DNA of 64,000 nucleotides. It comes from Kocuria sp. GTDB lineage: Bacteria > Actinomycetota > Actinomycetes > Actinomycetales > Micrococcaceae. This document shows, piece by piece, positions 30,157 through 36,538 of the stretch. Position 1 is the first letter of the stretch. Every line of letters starts with the position of its first letter. Position numbers and translations under genes: made by a program. The notes under the pieces are model-generated. The model ran no database searches. It saw only the letters and a program-made list of their open reading frames with translations, and was not told the origin of the DNA. Location of the stretch: assembly GCA_030524035.1 (NCBI GenBank), contig JAUNHG010000003.1, forward strand, positions 310,001 to 374,000, in the 5' to 3' direction.

Positions 30157-30296
30157 GGAACGCACACCGAATTTTTACTCAACGAAATCTCGCTCAAGAT
30201 GTTGACATGACACATTTCGTAAAGATTGGTTCGCCACCACAGTTCAGTACGCACCAAGTTCGTCGAGTATCGCGGTCAAGTCGGTAGCATGGAGTA

Positions 30297-30605
30297 TGTG
30301 TGGCTTATTGCCACACAGCATTCAGGAGAACACAACAGAGTCTGACCGATCGGACGGCACTGGGGGGTGCCACCGAGTCGTCGCCTGCTGTGGATCCGAC
30401 CGACCAGCCCGCGGTCCTCTCCTGATAGGGCGTTTACTCGCCCGCCGATGGTTGCGGGTCCTCTTCCATCACTTGGAAGCGCATCTCTCCCCGCGCTGGG
30501 TGCATTCAAGCATCCGTTCCCGCGACCATCGGTCTTGCGCAGCCAATAGTTGTTCTACAGCCCACGCACAGCGGCGGCCCCACCTAATACCGGTGGGGCC
30601 GCCGC
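30297..30605 (+). ncRNA. Candidate structured RNA between mbfA and sucD
   Basis: The 473-base gap 30157-30629 has no credible protein gene but folds extensively on the plus strand. Stems: 30297-30304/30310-30317; 30322-30329/30418-30425 enclosing 30340-30345/30350-30355 and 30356-30360/30367-30371; 30428-30432/30439-30443; a 14-bp stem 30445-30458/30519-30532 enclosing 30463-30468/30474-30479 and 30498-30503/30510-30515; then the terminator 30571-30605. The three non-Watson-Crick pairs are all G.U on the plus strand and would be A.C on the minus strand. TAGCAT (30285-30290), a -10 candidate, lies six bases before the first stem. Known RNase P, tmRNA, SRP RNA signatures are absent. No -35 is clear. 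Confidence 0.5.
30571..30605. terminator. GC-rich hairpin after sucD
   Basis: Perfect 14-bp inverted repeat (30571-30584 with 30592-30605, loop 7), 25 bases past the sucD stop. It can end sucCD transcription on the minus strand and the candidate RNA on the plus strand. No T-run follows on either strand. Confidence 0.75.
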
Positions 30606-30629
30606 CACTGTGTTGCCAAAAAGTACAGG

Positions 30630-31544
30630 TTACTTGGACATCACATCACGCATAAGCTGAGCAGTTTCAGTTGGGGTCTTGCCCACCTTCACACCGGCGG
30701 CTTCCAAAGCCTCCTTCTTGGCCTGCGCTGTACCGGAAGACCCTGAGACAATCGCGCCCGCGTGTCCCATGGTTTTACCTTCCGGTGCGGTAAAGCCCGC
30801 AACGTACCCCACCACGGGCTTGGTGACGTTGTTTTTAATGTACTCAGCGGCGCGCTCCTCGGCATCACCACCGATTTCACCAATCATCACAATGCCCTCA
30901 GTTTCCGGGTCGGCTTCAAAAGCCTCCAGAGCATCAATGTGGGTTGTACCAATGACGGGGTCCCCACCAATTCCAATCGCGGTCGTGAACCCCAGATCGC
31001 GCAGTTCGTACATCATTTGGTAAGTCAAAGTGCCAGATTTAGAGACCAAACCCAGTTTGCCCTTACCCGTGATGTTGGCGGGGGTAATGCCTAACAAGGA
31101 TTCTTCTGGGGAAATGATCCCGGGGCAGTTTGGTCCAATGATCCGGGTGGTGGGTTTGCCGTCCGCTCCAGTCTTACCTTTGGAGTACGACCAGAATTCA
31201 GCGGAGTCCTGCACCGGAATACCCTCGGTAATCACCACAACCAACGGAACCTGCGCGTCAATGGCTTCAATCACGGCGTCCTTGCAGAACTTCGGCGGGA
31301 CAAACACGATCGACGCATTCGCACCGGTCTGTTCAACGGCTTCAGCTACTGAACCGAACACCGGCAATTCAACGTCGTTGCCATTGTGGTCCCGATGCGA
31401 CACCGTGGTGCCAGCTTTCCGGGCGTTAACGCCACCAAGTATGTTGGTTCCGGCGGCGAGCATCCGGGCGGTGTGTTTGGTGCCTTCCCCGCCGGTGATG
31501 CCCTGAACGATGACCTTGGAGTCCTTGTTCAAAAAGATGGACAT
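30630..31544 (-). CDS. sucD: Succinyl-CoA synthetase alpha subunit
   Basis: Alpha subunit of the TCA-cycle enzyme that couples succinyl-CoA cleavage to NTP formation. 304 residues with the CoA-binding fold ([18 protein letters not shown]), [15 protein letters not shown], the phosphohistidine region IGPNCPGII, and the loop [21 protein letters not shown] containing the active-site His. ATG 31544 follows GAGGAA; the open frame upstream of it overlaps sucC and is not coding. It lies 34 bases after sucC. Confidence 0.97.
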
Positions 31545-31578
31545 AAGTGTTTCCTCTATTTCGTATGTGTGGCGGAAA

Positions 31579-36500: not shown

Positions 36501-36538
36501 TCCGCTCGCTGTCGAAGGTAAGAAAGGTCAATATGGGG

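What the first reader, a model, noticed from the sequence alone, without database searches (positions are those of the whole stretch)
30285..30605. Candidate structured non-coding RNA beside sucD
A 473-base gap without a gene forms, on paper, nine stems on the plus strand, including a 14-bp stem that closes a two-hairpin junction and a second 8-bp stem that closes another two-hairpin junction, then a strong terminator-like hairpin. All three wobble pairs are G.U only on the plus strand, which orients the RNA. A -10-like TAGCAT lies six bases before the first stem. The size, about 310 nt, is similar to that of the Ms1 RNA known from mycobacteria, but no homology is claimed.
Basis: partly seen in the sequence, partly recalled or inferred. 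Interest (0 to 1): 0.72.

Follow-up and report, generated by a model that had tools for sequence, protein, structure and literature searches.

The report
A conserved structured RNA in Kocuria
Between two unrelated genes of a Kocuria bacterium lies what looks like a gene for a folded RNA of about 240 bases that codes for no protein, keeps its shape across the relatives examined, matches no catalogued RNA family, and may be this genus's counterpart of the RNAs that bind RNA polymerase in other bacteria.

Summary
The stretch folds far better than shuffles (z -8.05). The RNA is in 27 of 27 genomes of the genus, Kocuria, single in this genome; 25 of 26 full-length copies, folded alone, hold at least 86% of one shared structure. 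Pairs are kept by compensation: 39 same-branch events against 3.0 +/- 1.7 expected, 0 of 500 simulations as high. G.U exceeds A.C 127 to 31, so the plus strand is the RNA. A TAnnnT -10 stands 6-7 bases before the first stem in 26 of 26. Downstream genes differ between clades and the upstream gene is replaced in K. dechangensis: a stand-alone gene. No Rfam family matches, and no convincing homologue was found outside Kocuria. The conserved RNA is about 240 nt; the last hairpin is clade-specific. Function is unproven. Ms1 membership fails on synteny and shape. As no 6S and no Ms1-type neighbourhood was found in Kocuria, RNA-polymerase binding is my leading, modest-confidence mechanism; a loop-pairing sRNA is the main rival.

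The parts
30285..30290 (+). -10 element TAGCAT (TAnnnT); start of transcription inferred at about 30297
   Evidence: TAnnnT 6-7 bases before the first stem in 26 of 26 loci examined, L027 not examined; no -35 consensus apparent
30297..30540 (+). structured ncRNA, conserved core (about 240 nt); 5' end inferred from the -10 element, 3' end from the end of conservation
   Evidence: covariance models R1 and R2 match 30294-30540; compensatory changes
30298..30316 (+). P1, 5' hairpin with variable loop
   Evidence: 85.4% of cells paired; no same-branch compensation in this helix; pairs in another register in some relatives
30319..30427 (+). P2 domain: 8-bp stem (30319-30327 with 30420-30427) closing the P3-P4-P5 arm and hairpin P6
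   Evidence: 99.5% of cells paired, 6 of 8 pairs with double changes
30333..30392 (+). P3-P4-P5 arm with invariant apical UGGGGGG
   Evidence: double changes in 5 of 5 (P3), 1 of 2 (P4) and 10 of 15 (P5) pairs, but only 84-92% of cells paired; apical letters invariant in 26 of 26
30398..30416 (+). P6 hairpin, loop with conserved CAGCCCR
   Evidence: 100% of cells paired, double changes in 3 of 5 pairs; loop letters in 26 of 26
30428..30443 (+). P7 hairpin, variable loop
   Evidence: double changes in 4 of 6 pairs
30444..30533 (+). P8 domain: 15-bp stem (30444-30458 with 30519-30533) closing P9, P10 and a variable hairpin
   Evidence: 97.1% of cells paired, 9 of 15 pairs with double changes
30478..30497 (+). 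P9 hairpin, loop with invariant CUCUCCCC
   Evidence: loop AYCUCUCCCC in 26 of 26; stem nearly invariant, so little covariation (1 of 5 pairs)
30498..30515 (+). P10 hairpin, variable loop
   Evidence: 99.3% of cells paired, double changes in 3 of 6 pairs
30570..30604 (.). 14-bp GC-rich hairpin, probably a two-way terminator between the RNA gene and convergent sucD; no U run
   Evidence: 0 of 60 shuffles as high in L001, L002, L003 and L007 only; in the other 22 of 26 loci 2 to 57 of 60 shuffles reach the score
   Evidence: Pfam VIT1 8.2e-54; in 25 of 27 genus loci
30630..31556 (-). sucD, convergent; context, not part of the RNA (start codon approximate)
   Evidence: Pfam CoA_binding, Ligase_CoA, Succ_CoA_lig

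Best explanation
Shown by sequence comparison: a stand-alone gene for a structured non-coding RNA of about 240 nt, with its own -10 element, conserved in the genus Kocuria. Inferred: it works as a protein-bound regulator through its folded shape and three nearly invariant loops, most likely as the abundant RNA-polymerase-binding RNA of the genus, filling the place that 6S, Ms1 or CoRP hold elsewhere. The two domains (P2 and P8) would form the binding surface, perhaps held together by pairing of the G-rich P5 loop with the C-rich P9 (or P6) loop.
For: Structure. Own -10 element. Present in 27 of 27 genomes of the genus and single in the window genome, as expected of a core function. Neighbours change while the RNA stays. 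No 6S over cut-off in 27 Kocuria genomes (two matches of E 0.5). No Ms1-type neighbourhood found: the HAD-IB matches of the window genome are SerB, a 726-aa two-domain protein, and a 234-aa protein whose downstream gap is an ileS leader with a T-box-like motif (motif recalled). RNase P RNA lies elsewhere (26 of 27), as does a 6C-like RNA. PMC11077062 section 33 (read) proposes one abundant RNAP-bound RNA per species and unknown types in bacteria such as Micrococcus luteus.
Against: No expression or binding data. The fold is two branched domains, not the long hairpin with a central bubble of 6S and Ms1. All arguments for RNA polymerase are indirect: size, core status, and alternatives not found. 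Not finding Ms1 rests on synteny and on Rfam, whose Ms1 reaches only near mycobacteria (PMC9130861); no Ms1 sequence was available for direct comparison. Invariant C-rich and G-rich loops fit a base-pairing sRNA equally well. The reverse strand also folds strongly. One of five covariation measures on A1 (number of further pair types, 66 against 69.7 in shuffles) did not exceed shuffles.
Confidence: 0.37

Rival explanations
1. A trans-acting base-pairing sRNA: the invariant C-rich loop of P9 (CUCUCCCC), and perhaps P6, pairs with G-rich ribosome-binding sites or other G-rich stretches of mRNAs; the P5 G-rich loop masks it or pairs with other targets.
For: Three loops are nearly invariant while P1, P7 and P10 loops vary. 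C-rich loops are the hallmark of 6C-type RNAs (recalled). A very weak Rfam match (ar14, E = 4, 12 bits against a cut-off of 58.8) falls on this hairpin in one relative.
Against: Complements of the loops are not enriched before start codons in the window: GGGGAG 12 of 43 sites, GGGAGAG 1 of 5, TGGGCTG 4 of 16; controls GGAGGA 13 of 45, GAGGGG 6 of 21, GGAGGG 7 of 20 (crude, and the controls resemble ribosome-binding sites). 74 conserved pairs are more than a pairing sRNA needs.
Confidence: 0.3
2. Another protein-bound or catalytic RNA of unknown partner (for example ribosome-associated), not bound to RNA polymerase and not pairing with mRNAs.
For: Two-domain fold, invariant loops and no match in Rfam leave this open.
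Against: Nothing specific points to any such partner.
Confidence: 0.26
3. A cis-acting element: leader (riboswitch-like) of the downstream gene or 3' UTR piece of the upstream VIT gene.
For: The VIT gene is upstream in 25 of 27 loci.
Against: Downstream stands sucD (opposite strand) in the window clade, a formyltransferase gene (same strand) in others, and another opposite-strand gene in L013 and L016. In K. dechangensis a BenE transporter gene stands in place of the VIT gene and the RNA remains. A -10 stands directly before the RNA in 26 of 26.
Confidence: 0.04
4. Not an RNA: a translated short ORF, or DNA-level repeats and terminators that only look structured.
For: ORFs cross the gap in the window.
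Against: No frame is open across the core in more than 9 of 26 relatives; compensatory changes far exceed a tree-based null.
Confidence: 0.02

Closest known systems
Ms1 RNA (MTS2823, scr3559) of Actinobacteria
   Same: Stand-alone RNA of about 230-300 nt in actinobacteria, with a promoter directly upstream (PMC4191392 passages, PMC9130861 section 19)
   Different: Not beside a HAD hydrolase gene; two branched domains instead of one long hairpin with a bubble; no Rfam match; binding to RNA polymerase unknown
CoRP RNA of Corynebacterium
   Same: Genus-restricted structured RNA in a genus where 6S and Ms1 were not found (PMC11077062 passages)
   Different: CoRP is 516 nt, lies among tRNA genes and is cleaved in stationary phase; this RNA is about 240 nt beside a VIT gene
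6S RNA (RF00013)
   Same: Size class
   Different: No match in the window region up to E 10 and none over cut-off in 27 Kocuria genomes
6C RNA (RF01066)
   Same: C-rich hairpin loops (recalled for 6C)
   Different: The 6C model has 75 positions, and a 6C-like RNA lies on another contig of the same genome (G000:C2, 43 bits, under the 47-bit cut-off)

Membership tests
Ms1 RNA | Beside a HAD-IB hydrolase gene | tested here: not met
   Neighbours are VIT1 and sucD. Best HAD-IB (TIGR01490) score in 25 Kocuria genomes is 116.8 bits, in open frames of 750-1086 aa, against 160-204 bits where relatives have the separate gene; the window genome's other HAD-IB genes have no Ms1-like gap that I could recognise
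Ms1 RNA | Long hairpin with single-stranded central bubble (PMC4191392, passages seen) | tested here: not met
   The conserved fold has two branched domains plus two hairpins
Ms1 RNA | Length about 230-304 nt | tested here: met
   Conserved core 233-247 nt in 26 loci
Ms1 RNA | Binds RNA polymerase core | not testable with these tools
   Needs RIP-seq or pull-down
Ms1 RNA | Rises in stationary phase | not testable with these tools
   Needs Northern blot or RNA-seq
6S RNA | Match to RF00013 | tested here: not met
   No match in the region up to E 10; 0 of 27 genomes over cut-off
CoRP RNA | tRNA-flanked, about 516 nt (PMC11077062, passages seen) | tested here: not met
   Nearest of the two tRNAs in the window begins at 36536; core about 240 nt
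6C RNA | Match to RF01066 | tested here: not met
   No match here; a 6C-like RNA lies elsewhere
RNase P RNA | Match to RF00010 | tested here: not met
   RNase P RNA lies elsewhere in 26 of 27 genomes; the miss is a 76% complete genome
cis-regulatory leader / riboswitch | Same downstream gene and orientation in relatives | tested here: not met
   Downstream gene and strand differ between clades
structured ncRNA gene (general) | Compensatory base-pair changes beyond phylogenetic expectation | tested here: met
   39 events against 3.0 +/- 1.7, 0 of 500 simulations as high
structured ncRNA gene (general) | Transcript detected | not testable with these tools
   No expression data at hand

The most novel reading that the evidence does not exclude
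A fourth class of abundant RNA-polymerase-binding RNA, beside 6S, Ms1 and CoRP, that arose within the Kocuria lineage, does not mimic an open promoter with one long bubbled hairpin, and binds the enzyme through a two-domain fold locked by a loop-loop contact.
Probability: 0.22. Interest if true: 0.82.

Novelty: new member of a known kind. Interest (0 to 1): 0.58.

Why it matters
It is an RNA family with strong comparative support and no match in Rfam 15, found in all 27 genomes of the genus that were held. A published proposal (PMC11077062, section 33) says that each bacterial species has one abundant RNA-polymerase-binding RNA and that unknown types await in actinobacteria without 6S or Ms1. 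This RNA is a concrete, easily tested candidate in such a genus. A separate class there would show that polymerase-binding RNAs have arisen or been replaced repeatedly.

Tried and rejected
Rfam at curated cut-offs on the window and on six Kocuria loci, and at E up to 10 on the region in the window and in three relatives: no family, and no weak family shared between them.

Distant homologues outside Kocuria: DNA search over 59 relatives (of 32 genomes of other genera two had matches of 22 and 30 bases, E 4.8e-4 and 0.005), exact-motif scan of genome contigs (19 loci, all titled Kocuria), R1 over 197 Micrococcaceae including 13 of the genus and over 394 genomes of the class, R2 with laxer filters over 35 genomes of 31 other genera. 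The model searches gave only six hits outside the genus, E 0.007-0.09 per genome. Of the three, two overlap long ORFs on the other strand (L093, L094) and the third (L095) has the same match letters as L094. Those were not followed. A divergent homologue below this sensitivity is not excluded.

Ms1 through its HAD neighbour: a strong HAD-IB gene is in 31 of 61 Micrococcaceae genomes, and I first took the conserved DNA behind it for Ms1; it is two small coding genes (bS22-like and BldC-like by eye, no family search). Among 12 order-level loci only those same coding stretches were shared. So no Ms1 from a near relative was available for direct comparison. In the window genome the three better HAD-IB matches were looked at: SerB, a 726-aa two-domain protein, and a 234-aa protein with a 289-base gap before ileS; that gap holds a T-box-like motif (recalled), has no Rfam match over cut-off and folds with z -1.7. 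6C as a landmark (six of eight fetched regions were inspected) led to no Ms1-like gap that I could recognise.

The same place in other genera: in 4 of 27 other-genus Micrococcaceae loci (L162, L174, L180, L184) sucD follows the VIT gene directly. The first 600 bases behind the VIT gene in the 27 loci gave no convincing similarity to the RNA (best E 0.004 over 35 bases).

Ribosome-binding-site pairing of the loops: no enrichment in the window; weak test with 64 kb.

Terminal hairpin as part of the RNA: rejected, beyond all shuffles in 4 of 26 loci only.

Literature, listings only: Kocuria with 6S RNA (0 papers); two of Kocuria, structured RNA, covariance model (217 papers, 20 listed, none of the 20 holds Kocuria); Kocuria rhizophila with small RNA (8 papers); Kocuria with noncoding RNA and transcriptome; structured noncoding RNAs with Actinobacteria; Micrococcus luteus with 6S RNA. 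Nothing in these listings describes this RNA. A search on MbfA (5 papers) was not used.

Full report
What is there. Window 30157-30629 is a 473-base gap between a plus-strand VIT-family membrane protein gene and the convergent sucD. The claimed stretch folds much better than shuffled sequence on the plus strand (z -8.05, 0 of 100 shuffles) and also on the minus strand (z -7.0, 0 of 100). The core alone, 247 nt, has z -6.0, 0 of 200; three relatives have z -3.2 to -3.4, with 0, 1 and 0 of 200 shuffles as good.

Organism and spread. A covariance model finds the full RNA in 19 of 19 of them. A DNA search of 59 genomes found the stretch in all 27 of the genus (own included); of 32 others two had matches of 22 and 30 bases that I take as chance. 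Model R1 finds it in 27 of 27 genus loci, one of them (L027) cut by a contig end. It is single in the window genome.

Structure. The 26 full-length copies were aligned (A1). Folded alone, 25 of 26 hold at least 86% of the consensus pairs open to them; L007 holds 39 of 66, lacking P3 to P6 as drawn, and L028 lacks P7. P1 forms in another register in some. The shape: hairpin P1; stem P2 closing a long arm (P3-P5) and hairpin P6; hairpin P7; long stem P8 closing P9, P10 and a variable hairpin. On A1 this structure has 36 of 74 pairs with changes on both sides against 20.4 +/- 2.3 in shuffles, and 90.4% of cells paired against 84.8%; one of five measures, the number of further pair types, does not exceed shuffles (66 against 69.7). 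On the model-fitted alignment A2, which leans towards the structure, 92.8% of cells pair, 45 of 74 pairs change on both sides against 23.6 +/- 2.5, and further pair types are 80 against 73.5 (7 of 500 as high); sliding the partners by 1-3 columns drops pairing to 34-50%. Single pairs in P3, P5 and P7 are unpaired in up to 15 of 26 rows, so the arm differs in detail between clades. With relatedness kept by a parsimony null, on a tree made from the same alignment (25 distinct full-length rows; L027 dropped), 39 same-branch compensations were seen against 3.0 +/- 1.7, 0 of 500 as high. They fall in eight of ten helices; P1 and P9 have none (P9 is nearly invariant). RNAalifold on its own predicts 43 pairs on A1 and 60 on A2. 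G.U cells are 127, A.C cells 31, which orients the RNA to the plus strand.

A gene of its own. A TAnnnT element stands 6-7 bases before the P1 stem in 26 of 26 loci (L027 not examined), so transcription is inferred to start at the foot of P1; no -35 consensus is apparent. The VIT gene is upstream in 25 of 27 loci. Downstream stands sucD in L001, L003, L007 and L010; a formyltransferase gene on the strand of the RNA in L005 (Pfam) and, by eye, in L004, L014, L017 and L022; and a different opposite-strand gene in L013 and L016 (phosphatase-like by eye only) (seven loci inspected). No reading frame stays open across the core in more than 9 of 26 copies. So neither neighbour explains the RNA and it does not look like a message. 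A terminal hairpin beyond all shuffles is found only in L001, L002, L003 and L007, so it belongs to the junction, not to the conserved RNA.

What it is not. No Rfam family matches. 6S was not found in Kocuria by RF00013 (0 of 27 over cut-off, two matches of E 0.5), RNase P RNA lies elsewhere in 26 of 27, and a 6C-like RNA lies on another contig. In the wider family and class no convincing homologue was found. A VIT-gene homologue is present in 61 of 61 Micrococcaceae genomes, but no similar RNA follows it in the 27 other-genus loci examined. The RNA thus seems to have arisen, or changed beyond recognition, in the Kocuria lineage.

How it may work (inferred). Three loops are nearly invariant (P5 UGGGGGG, P6 CAGCCCR, P9 CUCUCCCC) while the P1, P7 and P10 loops vary freely. 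The G-rich and C-rich loops could pair with each other (-7.3 kcal/mol for the bare P5 and P9 loops), but as neither varies there is no covariation to test it. The published view (PMC11077062, section 33 read) is that each species keeps one abundant RNA-polymerase-bound RNA, and that actinobacteria without 6S or Ms1 hide unknown types. The Ms1 survey (PMC9130861, sections 19 and 22 and the first part of 23 read) lists Arthrobacter but not Kocuria among carriers. Kocuria has no HAD-IB match of the strength seen in relatives, and in the window genome the three better matches are SerB, a 726-aa two-domain protein, and a 234-aa protein before an ileS leader with a T-box-like motif, none with a recognisable Ms1. 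A core, single-copy RNA of 240 nt with its own -10 element is what one would expect in that place, hence my leading mechanism; but its shape is not that of 6S or Ms1, and a base-pairing sRNA with C-rich loops fits the invariant loops as well. The test for pairing with ribosome-binding sites in the window was negative but weak.

Confidence. Structured ncRNA gene on the plus strand, about 0.96. Stand-alone rather than cis-acting, about 0.93. RNA-polymerase binding, about 0.35.

Noticed in passing
window 30570-30604; L002, L003, L007: Very strong hairpins (14, 21, 17 and 32 bp) stand after the RNA in part of the genus; in the window without a U run. Probably two-way terminators of convergent genes.
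   Followed up: partly
L005 / L061 (Kocuria dechangensis): The VIT-family gene next to the RNA is replaced by a BenE transporter gene; the best remaining VIT match in that genome is a 62% identical copy on another contig.
   Followed up: partly
L192 (G000:C2:301361-301436): A 6C-like RNA that scores 43 bits, under Rfam's 47-bit cut-off; the two other Kocuria genomes in that search score 42.0 and 46.3 bits, so cut-off-based annotation would miss it.
   Followed up: no
L211:2123-2411 (G000:C4): The 289-base gap before ileS holds a T-box-like motif (recalled) but has no Rfam match over cut-off.
   Followed up: partly
L126-L155, downstream of the HAD-IB gene: In many Micrococcaceae the HAD-IB gene is followed by a tiny bS22-like ribosomal protein gene and a BldC-like regulator gene (identified by eye); easily mistaken for an RNA-containing gap.
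   Followed up: partly
L004, L014 and relatives, between the RNA and the formyltransferase gene: A second -10-like element (TAGGAT or GATAAGATC) stands before the downstream gene, so that gene may have its own promoter (by eye).
   Followed up: no
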